From contig NZ_CP098039.1 of NCBI RefSeq assembly GCF_023650955.1, positions 1,364,001 to 1,428,000 of the forward strand: DNA of 64,000 bases, written 5' to 3'. A model generated the notes under the pieces. It worked only from the letters and a program-made list of their open reading frames with translations. It was not told the DNA's origin and made no database searches. Of the stretch, positions 23,216 through 54,058 are shown piece by piece. Position 1 is the first letter of the stretch. Each line of letters opens with the position of its first letter. The DNA comes from Thermosynechococcus sp. HN-54 (GTDB lineage: Bacteria; Cyanobacteriota; Cyanobacteriia; Thermosynechococcales; Thermosynechococcaceae). Both the position numbers and the translations under genes were made by a program.

Positions 23216-26200
23216 ATGAAACCCCTACAGCAGTGGCTATTTTCCATCACCTTGGTCTGTTGGGGGCTGTTGAGTGGCAACGTTTACAGCCAAATCACAC
23301 CAGCAACTCATGGAACTGGAACCACCGTCATCCAAAATGGCCAACAAATTGATATTGATGGGGGTCAGCTATCGGGGAATGGTCAAAATCTTTTTCACCT
23401 CTTTCGAGACTTCAATGTTGGTAACGGCCAAATTGCCAACTTTCTCTCTAACCCGCAAATTCGCAACATTCTCGCGGGTGTCAATGGTGGTAACGCTAGC
23501 TATATCAATGGTTTGATTCAAATCACGGGTGGCAACAGCAATCTTTATCTGCTCAACCCCGCAGGAATTGTTTTTGGCCCCAATGCTCGCTTGAATCTCC
23601 CGGCGGCATTCCACGCTTCCACAGCTCAACGGGTACTTTTTGAAGGTGGTGTTTTTGATGTTAACGGCCAGAACCTCTATCCATCCCTCAATGGTCACCC
23701 CACTGGCTTTGAATTCCTGAGTAAAGGGCTGATCATTAATGAAGGTGAGCTGAGAGTCCGCAGCGGTCAAACCCTGAGCCTCATGGCGCACCAAGTGATC
23801 AATACGGGTACGCTTTCAGCCCCCGCAGGCCATATCCAAATTGCAGCCGTACCTGAAACAGGAATGGTGCGGGTCTCCCAAGCGGGAATGCTCCTTAGCC
23901 TTGAAATTCCTCAGGATCGACTGCCACCCCATGGGGCGATCGCTGCCGTGGACTTACCCAGCTTACTGACAGGACAGAGTTCACAACCGGTCAACAGCGT
24001 CATTCGAAATTCCGACGGCACGATTCGCCTTGTCCATGATCCCAGCAAAATCCCCCTCACGACACCTACCGCAGTTATCAGTGGCAACCTTTCTGTGGGT
24101 AATCCCACAGGTATCGGCGGCCAAATCACGATCAGCGGTCAAAATATCGCCCTCATCAATGCCAACTTAACTGCCTCCGGTTCACTGGGGGGTGGCACGA
24201 TTCTCTTGGGGGGCGATTACCGAGGGGGAACAACAGGCACCAATCGGCTAGATAGTAGTTTCAATGCCCAGAACCTCTTTATCAGCAGTGGCAGTGTGAT
24301 TGCAGCAGATGCCCTGAATCAGGGAAATGGCGGCACCGTCATTGTCTGGGCAGACAACAGCACCCAATTTGCCGGCACCATCACTGCACGGGGGGGGCAA
24401 CTTAGCGGCAATGGTGGCTTTGTTGAGACTTCTGGACGAGAACTGCTCAGTGTTCAGGGAACAGTTGATGCCAGTACAGTTAATGGCCAGCCCGGTATAT
24501 GGCTCCTTGATCCACGAAATGTCATCATTTCTACCACCCCTACGAATGGTGGGAGTTTTTCTGGGGGTAATCCCGATGTCTTTACTCCCACCACTGATGA
24601 CGCTTTTGTTGAAAATACCGCCATTGAAGCTGCTCTTAACCTCGGCACTAGCGTGACAATTACCACAGGTGAGACCGGTACACAAGCTGGCAACATTTCT
24701 GTTTTTGCTCCCATCACAAAGACAACTGGTGGCGATGCCTCCCTAACATTCCAAGCCGCAAATGACATTCTTGTTTCCTATGACATTAGATCTGAGGCAG
24801 GCCGACTGAATCTCATTTTCCATGCAGATGCCGATAACAGCGGTGCAGGAGCAATTAGATTAGACTCAGCTGCACTCATTTCCAATGGCGGCAATATTAT
24901 CTTGGGCGGTGGCTCTAATCCCTTTACAAGTCCAGCGATTGGTGTAAACACTCCCGGTGTCAATATCAACAACTCTACCCTCAATGCAGAGGGCGGTAAC
25001 ATTAGGATTCATGGTCGCGGTGCAGCAACCGATGGCCAACTAGGGGTGTTCATGAGTGAGAGTTCAATTCTCACCTCAGGTTCTGGAGAGATCACCATTT
25101 TAGGAACGGGTGGCTCCAGCGTTTACAGCGCCATTGACGGTATTTCAATTCAGAATTCCTCAATCAGCGCCGAGGCTGGCAATCTTACCTTAACGGGTAC
25201 CGGTGGCAACGGCCTTGAAGTATTTTCTAACGTTGGCATCAGTCTTGAAGAGTCGGGAATTCAAACCACGACTGGGAATATTACCCTTACAGGTACTGGT
25301 GGTACGGGCTTTGCCTACAACCAAGAAGGTATTCTGAGTAGCTTCACAAGCATTACCAGTCAAAGCGGCGATATCATCCTTAGAGGCACAGGGGGGCAAT
25401 CCGCTGCTGGTCTTCTTTTTAGGGCAGCAACTGACACAGACTACCCTGCTCAGGTGAGAACGGCTGGGAATGGGAATATCCTCATTGAAGGTCGCGGCAC
25501 GAATGGTAGTTCGGGTCTAGTCATGGAAATTTCTGACCTCCTCACCGTTGCTGTCCATAATGGTGTGCTGACACTGGCAGCCCAAGGGGGCATTGAGCTT
25601 TTTGGTGACTCCACCTCTTTGCTAGATATAGATAGCACAGGGTCAGGCCGCCTTGTTTTTCGACCCATTGATGCCAACACTCCTGTTGGTGTTGGTGATG
25701 GTGCAGCAGGTAACTTAATCGTTGATCAGTTTCTCCTCAATCAAATCACAGGTGGATTTTCTTTAGTGACCATTGGTCACCCTAGTGGTACTGGTCTCCT
25801 TGATGTTCGCCCCTTTAGCCTCAACTACAATCTTGCCCTACAAACACCCGGCGTAAGTTCCCTAGGTATTCAGTTCAATGGCTCTGGAACAACTGACCTC
25901 AATGGTCGCAATCTCACGCTTATTAGCGGTGGCGGGGTTGCTCAGGGCAGTCACGCCATTTCAGCAGCAACTCTTCAACTGCTTGGACAGGGCATTGTCA
26001 TACTAAGTAATTCCAACAACCAGTTTCAGGCGCTCTCAGGGAATGTTACTGGCAATGTAAATCTCAACAACCAAGGCAACCTGACCATTAGTAGCTTTAG
26101 CAACGGTGTCAATGGTCTCACTACTGGCATCAACACCAATGGCAATACTTTAATTCTCAACCTAGGCAGTGGTAACTTAACACAAAGTGCACCGATTCGA

Positions 26201-28162
26201 GCTGGTAGCTTGGGCTTGACCCTACGAAATGGCAGTGCAATTCTGACCAACCCAAATAACCAAGTGGGCATACTTGCGGCTCAGTTGAACAGTTCTAGCG
26301 ATCTTCAATTTGTCAATAACGGTACCCTCACTGTTGGCAATGTCAATCCAACGGGTATTACAGGGCGCAGCATTTTCCTACAAACACTAACAAGTGATAT
26401 TGTTCTCAATGCGCCAATTTCTGCCTTTGGCGCTGGGGATGCCATTATTCTTACTGCGGAAAATAACTTTATTAACAATTATGGCTCTAGTGTCTTCAGC
26501 ACACCCAATGGTCGCTGGCTAGTTTATTCTACTGACCTCAACCTGAATATCAACGGTGGCCTCACGGGTTCAGAGCAATTCAATACCATCTATCCTCAGC
26601 CTGCTCTATTCTCTGGTTCTGGTTTTCTCTATCGGGTTTCTCAAGCACCGCCCACCCCTCCAACGCAACCCCCTGCACCTCCGACTCCGCCCCCGCCTCC
26701 CGTAGAACCGCCCACACCACCGCCTTCACAACCTCAACTTCAAGAGAATCTCGGCCAGATTTTATTCGGCGAGGAGGCAAAAGGCACTAAACTGCCAGAG
26801 AATACAGCTCAAGTCATATATTTTCCGGGCGTTGAGATCATCCGTCAGCAAATCGGTGCCGCTTTTGATCAAGGAGACTACAACAGTGCCATCAAACTGC
26901 TTCAGCAGCTTTATTCCTTTGAGTTTAGTGAGTACTTTAGTGAATTTTTGAGCACTCCCGGCCAAACAGGATTACAGATTCTGGATATTGATCAAATTAA
27001 AGAGTTACTGGCACGCATAGCCAAAGAAACAGGTCAAAAACCTGCCCTGACCTATGTCTTTTGGCGACCTGAACAACTAGATATATTTATCATCACACCG
27101 GAAGGCGAACCCATTTACCAACCCGTTCGAGTGCCCCAAGAAGCGGTGCGCCGTGTCATTGCTGCCTTTAATCGTGAGGTGCGAGATCCAACGAAAACAA
27201 ACAGCGATTCCTACTTATCCTTTGCTCAACAACTTTACCAATGGATCATAGGCGGTGTTGATACAGAACTACAAGAGCGCGGCATTAACACGCTAGTTTT
27301 TGCCCTTGATCAGGGGCTACGGGGTCTGCCGATAGCTGCTTTGCACACAGGGTCAAATGTTGTGGCCTCGGCAGTCAATGATAGTTCCCTAGACCGTAAT
27401 AGGCAGTTTCTGGTGGAACGCTACAGTTTGGGTCTCATCCCTAGTATCAATTTGGTTGATACCCGCTATCAACCCTTACAAAATGCCTCAATATTGGCAA
27501 TGGGGGCATCTGAGTTCCCAAATCAAAATCCCTTGCCAGCCGTTCCTGTAGAGCTACAAACCATTACTCAACTGGTCGGCCGCGGGAAGATGTTTCTCAA
27601 TGACACCTTCACAGTCTCGAACCTAGAAACCCAGCGTCGCCGCAGTCTATACCCCATTCTCCATCTGGCCACCCATGGTGAATTTAATCCGGGTAAACCA
27701 CACAATTCCTACATTCAATTTTGGGATAGGCAGCTTTCAATAACTCAATTACGGCAGTTGCGTTTATTCCAGCCACCCACAGAATTAATGACGCTAAGTG
27801 CCTGTCGAACAGCAGTAGGAGACGCGAATGCAGAACTGGGGTTTGCTGGACTGTCGCTACAAGCGGGGGCGAAGAGTTCTGTGGCTAGTCTGTGGTATGT
27901 GAGTGATGAGGGAACACTGGCACTGATGACGGCGTTTTATAGCCAGTTAGCAACTGCCCCAATTAAAGCAGAAGCATTGCGACAGGCTCAGCTTGCCATG
28001 ATCCACCAGCAGATTGTAATTGAAGGGAACCACCTGCGTAGCGGTAGCGTGCGAGGACAGCTTTCAATTCCTTTGCCCCAAGCAGTCCAAGGTAGTGGCG
28101 GGCATCAACTTTCCCATCCCTATTTTTGGGCAGGATTTACCCTGATTGGTAGCCCTTGGTAG
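23216..28162 (+). CDS. Secreted TPS/filamentous haemagglutinin protein with C-terminal CHAT protease domain
   Basis: 1648 residues from ATG 23216 (AGAGG 8 bases upstream). Signal peptide at 1-26 (MKPLQQWLFSITLVCWGLLS). A TPS/haemagglutination-activity domain follows (about 30-165, with LLNPAGIVFGPNARLNLP), then a long Gly/Asn/Thr/Ser beta-helix with many GNITLTGTGG-like rungs to about 1130. A proline-rich linker (near 1143-1175) leads to a CHAT domain (about 1330-1645) with catalytic His1487 in HLATHGEF and Cys1530 in LSACRTAVG. N-terminal features predict two-partner secretion; CHAT is a caspase/separase-type protease. No TpsB/Omp85 partner is adjacent. Both catalytic residues are intact. 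Confidence 0.9.
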   Translation: MKPLQQWLFSITLVCWGLLSGNVYSQITPATHGTGTTVIQNGQQIDIDGGQLSGNGQNLFHLFRDFNVGNGQIANFLSNPQIRNILAGVNGGNASYINGLIQITGGNSNLYLLNPAGIVFGPNARLNLPAAFHASTAQRVLFEGGVFDVNGQNLYPSLNGHPTGFEFLSKGLIINEGELRVRSGQTLSLMAHQVINTGTLSAPAGHIQIAAVPETGMVRVSQAGMLLSLEIPQDRLPPHGAIAAVDLPSLLTGQSSQPVNSVIRNSDGTIRLVHDPSKIPLTTPTAVISGNLSVGNPTGIGGQITISGQNIALINANLTASGSLGGGTILLGGDYRGGTTGTNRLDSSFNAQNLFISSGSVIAADALNQGNGGTVIVWADNSTQFAGTITARGGQLSGNGGFVETSGRELLSVQGTVDASTVNGQPGIWLLDPRNVIISTTPTNGGSFSGGNPDVFTPTTDDAFVENTAIEAALNLGTSVTITTGETGTQAGNISVFAPITKTTGGDASLTFQAANDILVSYDIRSEAGRLNLIFHADADNSGAGAIRLDSAALISNGGNIILGGGSNPFTSPAIGVNTPGVNINNSTLNAEGGNIRIHGRGAATDGQLGVFMSESSILTSGSGEITILGTGGSSVYSAIDGISIQNSSISAEAGNLTLTGTGGNGLEVFSNVGISLEESGIQTTTGNITLTGTGGTGFAYNQEGILSSFTSITSQSGDIILRGTGGQSAAGLLFRAATDTDYPAQVRTAGNGNILIEGRGTNGSSGLVMEISDLLTVAVHNGVLTLAAQGGIELFGDSTSLLDIDSTGSGRLVFRPIDANTPVGVGDGAAGNLIVDQFLLNQITGGFSLVTIGHPSGTGLLDVRPFSLNYNLALQTPGVSSLGIQFNGSGTTDLNGRNLTLISGGGVAQGSHAISAATLQLLGQGIVILSNSNNQFQALSGNVTGNVNLNNQGNLTISSFSNGVNGLTTGINTNGNTLILNLGSGNLTQSAPIRAGSLGLTLRNGSAILTNPNNQVGILAAQLNSSSDLQFVNNGTLTVGNVNPTGITGRSIFLQTLTSDIVLNAPISAFGAGDAIILTAENNFINNYGSSVFSTPNGRWLVYSTDLNLNINGGLTGSEQFNTIYPQPALFSGSGFLYRVSQAPPTPPTQPPAPPTPPPPPVEPPTPPPSQPQLQENLGQILFGEEAKGTKLPENTAQVIYFPGVEIIRQQIGAAFDQGDYNSAIKLLQQLYSFEFSEYFSEFLSTPGQTGLQILDIDQIKELLARIAKETGQKPALTYVFWRPEQLDIFIITPEGEPIYQPVRVPQEAVRRVIAAFNREVRDPTKTNSDSYLSFAQQLYQWIIGGVDTELQERGINTLVFALDQGLRGLPIAALHTGSNVVASAVNDSSLDRNRQFLVERYSLGLIPSINLVDTRYQPLQNASILAMGASEFPNQNPLPAVPVELQTITQLVGRGKMFLNDTFTVSNLETQRRRSLYPILHLATHGEFNPGKPHNSYIQFWDRQLSITQLRQLRLFQPPTELMTLSACRTAVGDANAELGFAGLSLQAGAKSSVASLWYVSDEGTLALMTAFYSQLATAPIKAEALRQAQLAMIHQQIVIEGNHLRSGSVRGQLSIPLPQAVQGSGGHQLSHPYFWAGFTLIGSPW

Positions 28163-40006: not shown

Positions 40007-41202
40007 AAGGCGACGAAGCTCACTATTCATCATTTTCGATCATTTGCTGAGGCAGAGGTTTTTCTTAATCCCTATACGTTGGTAGTGGGCACAAATAACG
40101 CAGGCAAGACAAATCTCATAGATGCTATTCGTCTTTTTTATAGCAAAGATATTAAATTAATTATGAGGAGCAGCGAGACTTCCCTAAGTTTGAGGTTAGT
40201 GATCCCGAGTCTTGGGTAGAACTTGAGTTTTTACTTACATCAGATGAGCAGAGGGTTCTGAAGCCAGAATATCTTCAGCCGAATAGCAACTTCAAAGTAC
40301 GGCGCTACCTAAAAAGCACTGATAAACAGAATGAGTGGTATGTGCAAAACACTGGTACTCAGGAATACACCAAATTTCATGGAGGAGGACGCAGTGCTCA
40401 AAGAAGACTTGGAAAAATTATCTATATTCCAGCATTCAGTAAGCTTGATGATCAAACAAAGTTAACGGGTTCTTCACCACTCCGAGATTTAATCCATTCT
40501 TTTATGATGCCTGCACTTGAAAATGGTAAGGCTTATCAGCACTTGAAAAGAGCTTTCAAGGCATTTGAAGAAAACCTGAGAGATGAAGCACATACAAGCA
40601 TTTCTCGCTTAGAGAAGCTTATTTCCGACAAAATTTATCATTGGGGCGCTAAAGCTGAAATTATCCGGTGGCAACAAGCAGGTATTAGAGTTCATGAAGA
40701 TGACCAAAGAATTGAGATGGAATCAATAAAGTACACACTTTGGCTAAACTCAAATCGTTGCAGTGCATTTTTTTATAATCGAGTTCTATTGGTAGAAGCA
40801 GCAACGCAAGTAGCACTTGTAGCACTTTTTGAATATATGACTAGTGAAGCTGGATTGCTTGATTCAGGCCAGTTTTTTGTTTTTGATTGTATGGGCAAAT
40901 ACAACATACATCGCTTCATGAATCTTTTTGGGGAGTTAGGTATTTGCCATGCTGTATTATGTGATACAGATAACGAGTGCGTATCCAAAACCATTGAAAA
41001 TTCAAAAAATAATTATACCCTTGGCATAGATTATATTCAGAAGGACATTGAGTCCTTTTTAGGTATTTCAATTAAAAGCAGCGAATCACACCGTAAGCCT
41101 CAGAACTGAATGTGGCATATCCAGCATAAAAACTTTGATACTCAAAAGCTTAATCAGCTAGCTGATAAAGTTAAAACTATATTACAAAAAACTGAAAATT
41201 AG
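40004..41202 (+). pseudogene. Decayed OLD-family (AAA ATPase / TOPRIM) nuclease
   Basis: Residues from ATG 40004 (LTIHHFRSFAEAEVFLNPYTL, then Walker A VVGTNNAGKTNL) match the N-terminus of OLD family proteins. The reading frame shifts by one base near 40156-40160; restoring a T in AAATTAATTATG gives continuous protein (NYEEQRDFPKFEVSD ...) to a TOPRIM-like end (RVLLVEAATQVAL, then VLCDTDNE). TGA at 41107-41109 is in frame before a residual tail to TAG at 41202. At about 400 codons versus about 600 for OLD, the ABC signature and Walker B region appear deleted. The gene is much more AT-rich than its neighbours, suggesting transfer. Confidence 0.88.
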
Positions 41203-50207: not shown

Positions 50208-51365
50208 ATGATCAAGCTGCGTCGCCTCAGTCAATCTTTGGAGGAACGCTGGGTAACCCCCGCCTATGCAGGACTGCTGCTGTTGGGGATGAATCTCTTT
50301 CTCTTTGCCGCAGCGATTAACTCGATGGCGGGCTGGCTGTACGTCATTACGGGGATCATTTTTGGTTTGCTCTTGGTGGCCGCGATTCTACCGCCGCGCT
50401 ATTTGCGGGGATTGGTGCTGGAGCGGGCCAAGCTGGATCCGGTTCATGCGGGCGATCGCCTGCGCCTAACGGTCCTTCTCACCAATGCCACCCAAAAACC
50501 TCGCCACAATTTGCAAGTGATTGACCCCGTTCCCCGCGCCCTTTGGTCAGCCACCCAACGAGAAGCGCCCCAACAGGCGATCGAGCGGCTTCCACCCCAA
50601 GAAACAATCACTTGGCAGTACGATCTCATCCCACCGCGTCGGGGCATTTATGAGTGGCAGCAACTGATCCTCCGCACCGCCGCCCCCTTGGGACTCTTTT
50701 GGTGCCGGCGTGCATTTCCCGTGCCGCAGCAGGTGGTGGTTTATCCGCAGGTTCTGCAACTGCAACAGTGCCCTTTGCTGGATCAATTGGGGCAAGAGAT
50801 TTCCCAAGAATGGCGCGATCGCCAGCATCATCTCCACGTTGCCCAAGAGGGCATCACCCGTGCCTTACGTCCCTACCGCTGGGGAGATCCTTTGCGTCTA
50901 GTGCATTGGCGCACCAGTGCCCGTTATGGCGAACTGCGGGTACGCGAGTTTGATACCTTTAGCGGTGGCAATGCAGTGACCGTTGCCTTGGATACCCGTC
51001 CCCACTGGAGCGGGGAAGACTTTGAGCAGGCGGTGATTGCGGCGGCTAGTCTTTATCTCTACAGTTTGCAACAAAAAATTCCTGTGCAGTTTTGGAGTCC
51101 TGCCACGGGGATGCTCCATGGCCAATCAACGGTGCTACGGGAATTGGCGGCGATCGCCCCCTGCCCAACCCTTGCCGAATATCCCCTTGATTCCTTGGTC
51201 TGGCTCACCAGTGACTGGGCAAGTCCTGACTCTTTACCTGTTGGCAGTTTTACCGTGCTCTGGGGCGAACCACCCCCACGGCGACAAGGAGGGTTTCTTT
51301 GGATTGATCGCGATCGCCCCCTAGGGATGCAATTACAAGCCGCTGTCAGCTATATCCTCTCTTAG
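50208..51365 (+). CDS. DUF58 domain protein, no adjacent MoxR
   Basis: 385 residues. Two N-terminal transmembrane helices (about 20-65: AYAGLLLLGMNLFLFAAAIN and LYVITGIIFGLLLVAAILPP), then a beta-rich domain (about 75-200), then the DUF58/vWA-like core RWGDPLRLVHWRTSARYGELRVREFD. DUF58 proteins usually work with a MoxR AAA ATPase in complex assembly. Here the partner is not adjacent; the thioredoxin gene precedes it instead. The C-terminus overlaps the CHAT gene stop by 4 bases. Confidence 0.88.
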   Translation: MIKLRRLSQSLEERWVTPAYAGLLLLGMNLFLFAAAINSMAGWLYVITGIIFGLLLVAAILPPRYLRGLVLERAKLDPVHAGDRLRLTVLLTNATQKPRHNLQVIDPVPRALWSATQREAPQQAIERLPPQETITWQYDLIPPRRGIYEWQQLILRTAAPLGLFWCRRAFPVPQQVVVYPQVLQLQQCPLLDQLGQEISQEWRDRQHHLHVAQEGITRALRPYRWGDPLRLVHWRTSARYGELRVREFDTFSGGNAVTVALDTRPHWSGEDFEQAVIAAASLYLYSLQQKIPVQFWSPATGMLHGQSTVLRELAAIAPCPTLAEYPLDSLVWLTSDWASPDSLPVGSFTVLWGEPPPRRQGGFLWIDRDRPLGMQLQAAVSYILS

Positions 51366-54058
51366 GGAAGCGGGCGCCACTCCCCACTGCTGACAAAGGC
51401 AGCCCAAAAATAGGGAATTTGCTTACTGGGGTCATTCATTAACTGCAACTGGGCTTGCCGTAAGGCTTCGCTGCGTCCCTTGCCAGCTGCTAAGTTTTGA
51501 TAAAAGGCAACCATGAGTTGTTGCGTCGTTGTGTCATCCACCTTCCAGAGGGAACTGACTTGGGTGCGTGCCCCTGCCAAGGTAAAAGCTCGCCGCAACC
51601 CATAGACCCCATCGCCCTTGAGAATATCCCCCCGCCCCGTATCACAAGCGGACATCACCACTAACTCGGTGCCATCGAGGTTGATGCCGGTGACTTCAAA
51701 AGCCGTTAACACGCCATCATCCATGCCACTCTGCCGTTGATTGAAGCCCGCCAACGCAAGGCCAGAGCGCAAGAGGGGATTTTCACCGCCAAAGGGCACA
51801 TTGGCATTGAGACCACGGGTATTTTGCAGCCCTTGGGGAGAGACGGGCGGACTCTCCAAGAAAAATCCATGGGTAGCTAAGTGAAGTATCCGCGGTCGTG
51901 GGGTTTCCTTGATCGCGGTTTCGGTGGCACTGCTACCGGTAAGCACTTGGGCTTGGGGCAACAGCGTACTCAGGGTTTTCACCTCGGTGGCTGTCCCCGG
52001 CAATTCTGTAAATGTGAGGCTGCGCAAATCCAGCGATCGCGGGTTCACTCCCCGCTGGCCACCTGCCGCTGCTCGGCCACTGCTTTGACCAAAGGTGGGA
52101 TTGCCCACCACCAAGGGGGGATTTGCGGGTTTGCTTCGCTGTTGTAGCCGCAGCAAGTCGCGTCCTGAGGTGAGCAGCGTGATTGTATAAGACTGGATCA
52201 GATAGCGATCCTGCCGATCCACCAAGGCCTCAAAGGGCAGAGTATTCAACTGACCATCGGGGGCAACTAGCAGATGAGTACTGCCCGCTAGGAAGGGTTC
52301 CAGAGGAGCTAAGAGGCGCTCATAGGCTGCCTTCAGGGGGGGCTTCGTTACGGTTGCCGGTAATCTTGGATCCGCTACCCGCTGTCGCGCTGCTTTGATC
52401 AACCCATCCACCTCAGCCACGGTGCCCAAGTCTCGCCATTGGGGGGCACCCCTATTTTTCAGGGCATAGAGGGCATAGCGGGGGGCTTCCCAACGGTTGG
52501 TTTTTGGGTTGTAGGGCACATACTCGATAAACTCCAGTAGCACAGCATTGGCGGGAATCGCTTGCTGCACGGCACTGAGGGTGACGGGGGTGACTTCCAA
52601 ACGGAAGTTGGCATTTTGGCTGACCAGTTGCGCTTCCAGTTGGTTGGCACGCTGTTCGAGTTGACTAATTTGGCTGGCCGGGGGTGGGCGATCGCGCACA
52701 AACGTCAGGCTCGCAATTTGCGTCCGCACACGAATCAATTCATCCAGTTGCTGCTGGCCTGAGGCATCCAGTTGATTGCGTAGGCGACTGGCCGTTGCCG
52801 CTAAAACATCCAACAACCGACCTTTGCGGCGCAAAATGGTGGTCAAGGCTAGGTTGGCCACTGCTGGATTCTGGGGATTCCCCTGCAAATGGAAGGAAAT
52901 GGCGGTGTTGGTGGAGTCTTGAAATGTGGCCAGATAGTTGCGTTTATATTCCTCGGAGCCAACCACGAGGTTACGGCTAAGATTGACCTCTTCAATCTCA
53001 AGGGCGCGGTTGAGTGCGGTTAAGGCCTCGTTGATCATTCCCTGTGCCCAGTAGGCTTTGGCCAAATTGGCAAGAGTCAGCGCCAAGTAGGGATGCTCAC
53101 CACCAAGGGTACGCTGCCGTAGGGCAATGCTGCGTTGATAGAGGGGAAGCGCCGCCCCATAATTTCCTTGGACTCGATAGAGTTCGGCCAAGTTGTTGAG
53201 GCTGGTAGCAACATCGGGGTGATCTGCTCCTAGTACTTTTTCGCGGATGGCTAGACTGCGTTGGTAAAGGGGAAGCGCCGCACCATAGTTCCCCTGGGCA
53301 CGATATAACTCCGCTAGGTTATTCAACACCGTTGCCACCAAGGGATGTTCTGGCCCTAAGGCAGGTTCAAGTCCCCCCAGACTCCGCTGATAGAGCGGCA
53401 AGGCGGCACTCAAGTTGCCCTGCAAATGATACATGACGGCTAAGTTGTGCACACTCAAGCTCACATCGGGATGGTTCTTGCCAAGGGCTTGTTCCCGAAT
53501 GGCAAGGGCGCGCTGATACAGGGGCAAGGCCTCGCCGTAGTTGCCTTGATCGGTGTAGAGGTTGGCGAGGTTATTGAGGCTGGTGGCGACATCAGGATGA
53601 TTTGCGCCAAGGGCTTTTTCACGGATGGCCAAGCTGCGCTGGTAAAGGGGAATCGCCTCACTAAAATTGCCTAGTTCCTTGTAGGTAACGGCGAGGTTAT
53701 TTAAGGTTGCAGCAACCGTGGGGTGATTGGGGCCTAGAACCCGCTCGGCAATCGCCACCAATTCCCGCGAAGGTGCCACCGCTGCGCCATAATTCCCCTG
53801 TTTTTGCAACTGCTCAATCTGATTTGTGAGGGCAATGACAGTATTACTATCGCCGCCAAAAGAGGTTTTGCGAATCACGTCTAGTTCACTGACGGCGGCA
53901 CTATAGCGCTGTTGCAGGGCATCCAACCGCTGCATAATGTCGCGCAACTGTTGGGCTTCATTTTGTGCTAGCCCCCGTAGGCAAAATCCTGTGGTTGTGG
54001 CGATCGCCAACAGGATGGCAAAACAACGCCGATGGCTCGCGAACTGTTCCATAAACAC
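51362..54058 (-). CDS. TPR-CHAT protease-like protein
   Basis: 898 residues from 54058; an in-frame ATG at 54052 is an alternative. A hydrophobic N-terminus (FAILLAIATTTGFCLRGLAQ) suggests export. A coiled-coil region (about 35-85) is followed by six 42-residue TPRs (about 91-342; repeat form ALPLYQRSLAIREKALG). A helical linker leads to a CHAT domain (about 560-895) with His730 in LHLATHGFFLES and Cys805 in VMSACDTGRGD, both intact. The CHAT name reflects caspase-like proteases associated with TPRs and HetF. Likely substrate unknown; no gasdermin or CRISPR gene is nearby. Confidence 0.92.
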   Translation of the reverse strand: MFMEQFASHRRCFAILLAIATTTGFCLRGLAQNEAQQLRDIMQRLDALQQRYSAAVSELDVIRKTSFGGDSNTVIALTNQIEQLQKQGNYGAAVAPSRELVAIAERVLGPNHPTVAATLNNLAVTYKELGNFSEAIPLYQRSLAIREKALGANHPDVATSLNNLANLYTDQGNYGEALPLYQRALAIREQALGKNHPDVSLSVHNLAVMYHLQGNLSAALPLYQRSLGGLEPALGPEHPLVATVLNNLAELYRAQGNYGAALPLYQRSLAIREKVLGADHPDVATSLNNLAELYRVQGNYGAALPLYQRSIALRQRTLGGEHPYLALTLANLAKAYWAQGMINEALTALNRALEIEEVNLSRNLVVGSEEYKRNYLATFQDSTNTAISFHLQGNPQNPAVANLALTTILRRKGRLLDVLAATASRLRNQLDASGQQQLDELIRVRTQIASLTFVRDRPPPASQISQLEQRANQLEAQLVSQNANFRLEVTPVTLSAVQQAIPANAVLLEFIEYVPYNPKTNRWEAPRYALYALKNRGAPQWRDLGTVAEVDGLIKAARQRVADPRLPATVTKPPLKAAYERLLAPLEPFLAGSTHLLVAPDGQLNTLPFEALVDRQDRYLIQSYTITLLTSGRDLLRLQQRSKPANPPLVVGNPTFGQSSGRAAAGGQRGVNPRSLDLRSLTFTELPGTATEVKTLSTLLPQAQVLTGSSATETAIKETPRPRILHLATHGFFLESPPVSPQGLQNTRGLNANVPFGGENPLLRSGLALAGFNQRQSGMDDGVLTAFEVTGINLDGTELVVMSACDTGRGDILKGDGVYGLRRAFTLAGARTQVSSLWKVDDTTTQQLMVAFYQNLAAGKGRSEALRQAQLQLMNDPSKQIPYFWAAFVSSGEWRPLP
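53033..53788 (-). repeat. Six tandem 126-bp TPR-coding repeats
   Basis: Six consecutive 42-codon units encode the kinesin-light-chain-type TPR array of the CHAT protein (residues 91-342). Units share LPLYQRS, IRE, ALG-x-x-HP and NNLA-x-x-Y-x-x-QGNY. They are similar enough at DNA level that slippage or recombination between units could change copy number. Confidence 0.85.

What the first reader, a model, noticed from the sequence alone, without database searches (positions are those of the whole stretch)
23216..28162. Two-partner-secretion haemagglutinin fused to a CHAT protease
TPS, long beta-helix, proline-rich hinge and an intact His1487/Cys1530 CHAT domain are in one 1648-residue reading frame. 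CHAT enzymes are usually cytoplasmic TPR proteins, so a protease carried to the cell surface on a haemagglutinin shaft would be a surface effector, contact-dependent toxin or self-processing adhesin. A second CHAT gene lies in the window. The domain pair is seen in the sequence; the function is inferred.
Basis: partly seen in the sequence, partly recalled or inferred. Interest (0 to 1): 0.66.

Follow-up and report, generated by a model that had tools for sequence, protein, structure and literature searches.

The report
Secreted adhesin carrying a caspase-like protease
A heat-loving cyanobacterium (a Thermosynechococcus) encodes a long secreted adhesin-type protein with an apparently intact caspase-like protease at its tail; the same pairing occurs across cyanobacteria, and in other bacteria the protease sits beside the adhesin's export genes as a separate gene, so it probably serves that export system at the cell surface.

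Summary
ORF 23216-28162 (+, 1648 aa) has a signal peptide, TPS domain (E 1e-32), long shaft, Pro-rich hinge and CHAT domain (E 2.5e-69) with His1487/Cys1530 in one frame. It is not a sequence error: orthologues share it under purifying selection, and I read TPS+CHAT in one frame in 36 genomes of 15 cyanobacterial families. The host, a Thermosynechococcus, has two such fusions, its only TPS proteins, and one TpsB gene elsewhere. The premise that CHATs are usually cytoplasmic fails here: most complete-5' cyanobacterial CHATs sampled, including the window's TPR-CHAT, have a predicted signal peptide. The catalytic Cys is the only Cys of this mature protein. A separate CHAT gene lies beside TpsB, usually with TpsA, on plasmids of Nostocales, Acaryochloris, Planktothrix and Leptolyngbya, in Burkholderiaceae, and near a TpsB-like gene in Sphingobium; the Nostoc operonic CHAT is sister to the fused clade. 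Best reading: an exported protease dedicated to two-partner secretion, probably processing the exoprotein; an outward-acting surface protease is the main rival. A CDI toxin is unlikely (conserved C-terminus, no immunity gene). No paper describing the pairing was found in the library searched.

The parts
23216..28162 (+). TPS-CHAT exoprotein gene, 1648 aa
23216..23290 (+). Sec signal peptide (residues 1-25, ...VYS^QITPA)
   Evidence: sequence pattern and heuristic; orthologues have the same kind of N-terminus
23300..23890 (+). TPS secretion domain, residues 29-225, NPAG at 114
   Evidence: Pfam PF05860 E 9.9e-33; PDB match to EtpA 8vba E 4e-33 over the first ~430 mature residues
23891..26635 (+). 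long repetitive shaft (presumed beta-helix), residues 226-1140, no cysteine
   Evidence: shaft is 56-85% identical among orthologues against 72-89% for the C-terminal module; fold inferred
26645..26743 (+). proline-rich hinge, residues 1144-1176; expands by about 285 residues of PTPPTEPS repeats in an orthologue
26816..27220 (+). conserved pre-CHAT module (helices then strands), residues 1201-1335
   Evidence: AF2 pLDDT mostly 50-89 for the pre-CHAT part of the modelled module
27221..28153 (+). CHAT caspase-like protease domain, residues 1336-1646
   Evidence: Pfam PF12770 E 2.5e-69; Foldseek best matches are caspases, with SAVED-CHAT and Csx29 lower, from a low-confidence model
27674..27676 (+). 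catalytic His1487
   Evidence: His kept in 50 of 50 TPS-type CHATs
27803..27805 (+). catalytic Cys1530, the only Cys of the mature protein
   Evidence: Cys kept in 50 of 50
51362..54058 (-). second CHAT gene: signal peptide + TPR + CHAT, 898 aa; separate clade, not part of the TPS-CHAT unit

Best explanation
The gene encodes a TpsA-type exoprotein with its own cysteine protease. Steps: (1) Sec export by the N-terminal signal peptide; (2) the TPS domain engages a TpsB encoded elsewhere in the genome (574 aa, G000:C1 about 1,687,770-1,689,500); (3) the shaft is laid out on the cell surface; (4) the CHAT domain, tethered by the proline-rich hinge, ends up in the periplasm or on the surface as an active caspase-fold protease; (5) it cleaves the TPS exoprotein itself (in cis, or the paralogue in trans) to mature or release it. 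Shown: architecture, dyad conservation, cysteine depletion, selection, TpsB in the genome, CHAT/TPS operons in other bacteria. Inferred: steps 3-5, above all the substrate. Confidence: about 0.85 that CHAT is exported, 0.75 that it works together with the TPS machinery, 0.45 that the substrate is the exoprotein.
For: Signal peptide, TPS and CHAT in one frame. Mature protein has one Cys, the catalytic one; 31 of 40 complete-5' TPS-CHAT frames have no non-catalytic Cys in the last 440 aa, 0.85 per 1000 against 10.6 per 1000 in twelve other window proteins and 8-9 Cys in two ~1000-aa Streptomyces CHATs without signal peptide. Dyad intact in 50 of 50. dN/dS 0.09-0.14 for CHAT, 0.09-0.13 for TPS, 0.2-0.33 for the hinge. 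TPS and TpsB co-occur over 291 genomes, 211/1/23/56, p 5e-40. CHAT as a separate gene overlapping or next to TpsB, with TpsA, in Nostoc, Nodularia, Fischerella (TpsB-CHAT in Acaryochloris) and in Caballeronia and Paraburkholderia; 13 of 20 records within 500 bp, 0.47 expected. The Nostoc operonic CHAT is sister to the fused clade, 99%. Since the unfused operonic CHATs have no TPS domain but mostly a signal peptide, a role on the TPS exoprotein in the periplasm fits both layouts.
Against: No cleavage site is visible: the hinge is variable and no motif in it is kept beyond the genus. The hinge expansion by about 285 residues in one orthologue (L078) looks like a spacer for displaying the CHAT rather than a cut site. 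Shaftless signal-peptide CHATs exist (two or more losses of the TPS part), so the CHAT is kept without a shaft in cis. CHATs occur in genomes with no TPS and no TpsB match (G023, G041), and the ones read there have signal peptides (L167, L168), so exported CHATs must also have other substrates. No proteolysis has been shown. The 13-of-20 count is biased: the queries come from one such operon and many of the records are related.
Confidence: 0.45

Rival explanations
1. Surface effector: the shaft and the proline-rich hinge display the CHAT protease outside the cell, where it cuts foreign proteins (competitors, phage or predator proteins, matrix or nutrient proteins).
For: C-terminal position at the far end of a TPS shaft; hinge variable and hugely expanded in L078; dyad and domain under purifying selection; several operons of the related unfused CHAT lie beside a kinase or kinase/NB-ARC pair.
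Against: Unfused operonic CHATs carry no TPS domain and so could not ride on the shaft; no diversification of the CHAT as expected for an effector in an arms race; no sign of a specific foreign target.
Confidence: 0.3
2. Envelope sensor: the exported CHAT is held inactive and is released or activated by contact, damage or secretion stress, and cuts an envelope protein to start a signal (as defence CHATs do in the cytoplasm).
For: Known CHATs act as triggered switch proteases (Csx29, SAVED-CHAT; general knowledge, and Foldseek matches); CHASE2/cyclase and kinase genes lie near some TPS/CHAT loci.
Against: No such partner lies near the window gene, and the location of the gene is not conserved.
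Confidence: 0.15
3. Contact-dependent inhibition toxin of CdiA type with CHAT as the toxic tip.
For: TPS protein with an enzymatic C-terminus.
Against: No immunity-like ORF after the gene (111 bp to alaS), no VENN motif, no adjacent TpsB, C-terminus as conserved as the TPS end across species; CDI toxins are polymorphic and paired with immunity genes (general knowledge).
Confidence: 0.03
4. Artefact or non-functional relic: a sequencing error joins two genes, or the CHAT is dead or never exported.
For: One orthologue (G003) is split by a frameshift in the shaft (L134).
Against: Same fusion in one frame in 36 genomes of 15 families, dN/dS about 0.1 on both ends, dyad 50/50, cysteine depletion.
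Confidence: 0.02

Closest known systems
TPS exoproteins (FHA/FhaB, HMW1, EtpA)
   Same: Signal peptide, TPS domain with NPXG-type motif, long repetitive shaft, trans-acting TpsB; N-terminal part matches EtpA (8vba, E 4e-33) and an HMW1-type adhesin (2odl). FhaB also ends in a proline-rich region plus a C-terminal domain held in the periplasm (general knowledge).
   Different: The C-terminus is a caspase-like protease with intact dyad; in FhaB outside proteases do the processing (general knowledge).
CHAT proteases of defence systems (Csx29, SAVED-CHAT) and HetF
   Same: Pfam CHAT, His/Cys dyad, caspase-like fold by Foldseek.
   Different: Those are cytoplasmic or membrane-bound (HetF: CHAT-TM-TPR, PMC8406250; a cytoplasmic conflict-system CHAT in PMC10907252); this one is exported, cysteine-depleted, without TPR, on a TPS shaft.
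CdiA-type contact-dependent toxins
   Same: TPS protein with an enzymatic C-terminal part.
   Different: No immunity gene, no VENN motif, no polymorphic C-terminus, no adjacent TpsB.
TpsA-TpsB-CHAT(TPR) operons of Nostocales plasmids
   Same: Same three activities; the operonic CHAT is sister to the fused clade.
   Different: Here CHAT is fused to TpsA and TpsB is unlinked; the operonic CHAT carries TPRs instead of a TPS shaft.

Membership tests
Two-partner-secretion exoprotein (TpsA) | N-terminal Sec signal peptide | tested here: met
   MKPLQQWLFSITLVCWGLLSGNVYS-Q by a simple heuristic, not a trained predictor
Two-partner-secretion exoprotein (TpsA) | TPS domain over curated cut-off, NPXG-type motif | tested here: met
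   PF05860 114.5 bits (cut-off 33.5), TIGR01901 78.8 bits; NPAG at 114
Two-partner-secretion exoprotein (TpsA) | Long beta-helical shaft | tested here: inconclusive
   N-terminal ~430 residues match EtpA/HMW1-type structures; the rest was not modelled
Two-partner-secretion exoprotein (TpsA) | Cognate TpsB transporter in the genome | tested here: met
   One ShlB/POTRA_2 gene of 574 aa, unlinked; that it is the partner is inferred
Two-partner-secretion exoprotein (TpsA) | Secretion to the surface | not testable with these tools
   needs experiment
CHAT domain proteins (PF12770) | CHAT profile over cut-off, full length | tested here: met
   234.4 bits (cut-off 24), profile 3-289 of 289
CHAT domain proteins (PF12770) | His/Cys catalytic dyad | tested here: met
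   His1487, Cys1530; kept in 50 of 50 relatives
CHAT domain proteins (PF12770) | Caspase-like fold | tested here: inconclusive
   Foldseek best hits are caspases, with SAVED-CHAT and Csx29 lower, but model pLDDT is 49.7
CHAT domain proteins (PF12770) | Proteolytic activity | not testable with these tools
   needs experiment
TPR-CHAT proteins | TPR repeats N-terminal to CHAT | tested here: not met
   No TPR match; tree separates the TPS-type from the cyanobacterial TPR-type CHATs
CdiA contact-dependent toxin | Adjacent immunity gene and CdiB | tested here: not met
   111 bp to alaS without ORF; TpsB unlinked
CdiA contact-dependent toxin | Polymorphic C-terminal toxin after a VENN-type motif | tested here: not met
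   No VENN; CHAT 78-84% identical between species, like the TPS end

The most novel reading that the evidence does not exclude
CHAT is a third partner of two-partner secretion: an exported caspase-like protease dedicated to maturing or gating TPS exoproteins, encoded beside TpsB/TpsA in several cyanobacteria and Proteobacteria and fused to TpsA across cyanobacteria. TPS systems of this kind would carry their own protease instead of relying on general envelope proteases.
Probability: 0.4. Interest if true: 0.78.

Novelty: new variant of a known kind. Interest (0 to 1): 0.56.

Why it matters
CHAT proteases are mostly discussed as cytoplasmic defence or cell-death enzymes. Here a large set is exported and tied to an outer-membrane secretion pathway, by fusion in one lineage and by operon in others. 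If CHAT processes TPS exoproteins, it gives those systems a built-in maturation step that can be tested by one point mutation in a small-genome cyanobacterium; if it acts outwards, it is a caspase-like enzyme displayed on a bacterial surface.

Tried and rejected
Sequence-error fusion: rejected (orthologues, dN/dS, 36 genomes). CDI toxin: rejected on missing immunity gene, VENN motif and polymorphism. Unique to this genome: rejected. PDB sequence search with the CHAT module found nothing relevant. The search for related loci in genome contigs gave 3 loci and in viral contigs none: the patterns were too narrow. Looking for a conserved cleavage motif in the hinge: none beyond the genus. Synteny of the window locus: alaS does not follow the gene in orthologues. 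Ten paper searches: no paper found that describes CHAT with TPS/FHA; the library is open-access only, so this is not proof of absence. PADLOC gave only a weak match of the CHAT part to BovA (E 1.8e-5).

Full report
1. Observation. The frame at 23216-28162 (+) is open from ATG to stop, 1648 aa. Pfam finds two domains: TPS at 29-225 (E 9.9e-33) and CHAT at 1336-1646 (E 2.5e-69); NCBIfam adds adhes_NPXG. The N-terminus is a plausible signal peptide. The first ~430 mature residues match the solved structures of EtpA (E 4e-33) and an HMW1-type adhesin. A low-confidence CHAT model still has caspase-1, caspase-2 and CED-3 as best fold matches, with SAVED-CHAT and Csx29 lower in the list. The second CHAT gene of the window is a TPR-CHAT at 51362-54058 (-).

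2. The genome. G000 is a complete 2.71-Mb genome whose nearest named relatives are Thermosynechococcus. It has two TPS proteins, both fused to CHAT: the window gene and a 1414-aa paralogue at about 1,071,120-1,075,370 (-), 52-53% identical over both ends with a diverged middle. It has one clear TpsB (ShlB + POTRA_2, 574 aa) at about 1.688 Mb, beside trpA and not beside a TPS gene. The other CHAT matches are two TPR-type and one short one.

3. How common. A profile of the CHAT module matches 236 of 291 cyanobacterial genomes at E <= 1e-20; this includes CHATs that are not fused. Reading the fetched frames, I found TPS and CHAT in one open frame in 36 genomes of 15 GTDB families (counted by hand from handles and family labels); the longest frame has 5616 codons. 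TPS-bearing genomes almost always have a TpsB match at E <= 0.001: 211 with both, 1 with TPS only, 23 with TpsB only, 56 with neither (tallies, cells by hand; Fisher p 5e-40); a few of the TpsB matches are marginal. One CHAT frame whose 5' end is cut by the contig edge but whose shaft is of TPS type overlaps a TpsB gene (L099), and one locus has two fused genes in tandem (L137).

4. Selection. Among orthologues in the genus, TPS is 76-89% and the pre-CHAT/CHAT part 72-89% identical to the window protein, shaft 56-85%, hinge 51-75%. dN/dS is 0.09-0.13 for TPS, 0.09-0.14 for CHAT and 0.2-0.33 for the hinge. One orthologue (L078) has about 285 extra residues of PTPPTEPS repeats in the hinge. His and Cys of the dyad are kept in 50 of 50 TPS-type CHATs. 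One orthologue (G003) is split by a frameshift.

5. Exported or cytoplasmic. The mature window protein has one cysteine, the catalytic one. In 40 TPS-CHAT frames with complete 5' ends, 31 have no other Cys in the last 440 residues, 6 have two and 3 have one: 0.85 per 1000 residues, against 10.6 in twelve other window proteins. Most of the cyanobacterial CHATs of other types whose 5' ends were complete, including the window's TPR-CHAT, have a predicted signal peptide and mostly one Cys in the last 400 residues. So do several alphaproteobacterial and Burkholderiaceae CHATs. The two full-size Streptomyces CHATs, without signal peptide, have 8 and 9 Cys. The signal-peptide call is a simple heuristic.

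6. A link between CHAT and TPS that does not depend on the fusion. On plasmids, separate TPR-CHAT genes overlap or follow TpsB, with TpsA upstream, in Nostoc ATCC 53789, Nodularia and Fischerella. In Acaryochloris TpsB and CHAT overlap and the upstream gene is annotated hypothetical. Of 20 records in which both genes were placed, 13 have them within 500 bp, with 0.47 expected; the records are partly related and the queries come from one of them. In Caballeronia and Paraburkholderia the order is CHAT, TpsB, TpsA. In Sphingobium CHAT, a CHASE2-cyclase, a small protein and a POTRA_2 protein follow one another. A tree of CHAT modules puts the Nostoc operonic CHAT next to the TPS-fused clade (99%) and the Burkholderiaceae ones elsewhere, so the pairing arose more than once, or was kept while CHATs were exchanged. 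Within cyanobacteria the fused and short CHATs form one clade apart from TPR-CHATs, with a few shaftless forms nested inside.

7. Mechanism. The protein is very probably exported and engages TpsB through its TPS domain (established for the family, inferred here). The operonic forms have no TPS domain, so they would reach the periplasm but not ride a shaft; what fused and operonic forms share is an exported CHAT beside a TPS exoprotein. I therefore favour a protease that acts on the exoprotein, in cis when fused. Against it: no conserved cut site, a hinge that looks like a spacer, and exported CHATs in genomes without TPS. An outward-acting surface protease is the main rival, an envelope sensor the next. 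A CDI toxin is unlikely: no immunity gene, no VENN, no polymorphic tip.

8. Known or new. Both domains are well-known families, and public records annotate such proteins generically as 'CHAT domain-containing' or 'filamentous hemagglutinin N-terminal domain-containing'. None of ten full-text searches found a paper on CHAT with TPS or FHA. I rate it a new variant of a known kind; the recurrent TPS/CHAT pairing is the interesting part.

Noticed in passing
window 51362-54058 (-): The window's TPR-CHAT starts with a signal-peptide-like stretch (MEQFASHRRCFAILLAIATTTGFCLRGLAQ) and has only the catalytic Cys in its mature part, so it too is probably exported.
   Followed up: partly
L204 65-8726; L205 4497-12462; L206 3690-13551: In Nostoc ATCC 53789, Nodularia and Acaryochloris plasmids, the TpsB-CHAT operon faces a convergent block of a hypothetical gene and a Ser/Thr kinase, with NB-ARC next in Nostoc and Acaryochloris; it looks like a conserved conflict-type neighbourhood.
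   Followed up: no
L197 1449-8020: Sphingobium plasmid: CHAT, CHASE2-guanylate cyclase, small protein, then a POTRA_2 (TpsB-like) protein annotated as heme:hemopexin-binding.
   Followed up: partly
L078 4093-9972: Orthologue with about 285 extra residues of PTPPTEPS repeats in the hinge.
   Followed up: partly
L118-L126, L131-L133: Short CHATs (about 440-540 aa frames), mostly with a predicted signal peptide, without a TPS shaft, related to the fused clade; at least two separate losses of the shaft.
   Followed up: partly
L134 4160-9105: G003 orthologue split by a frameshift in the shaft into 640- and 1060-codon frames.
   Followed up: no
L202 1-16798: Pseudosulfitobacter plasmid with two caspase-family genes, two trypsin-like/serine proteases and a signal-peptide CHAT in one region, present on many near-identical plasmids.
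   Followed up: no
L203 1-15764: Nostoc C052 plasmid: TpsA, CHAT, DUF928, sigma-70, DUF1822 and CHASE2 genes close together.
   Followed up: no
window 40342-41109 (+): Small protein with only an OLD-like TOPRIM domain (255 aa); possible fragment of an OLD-family nuclease.
   Followed up: no
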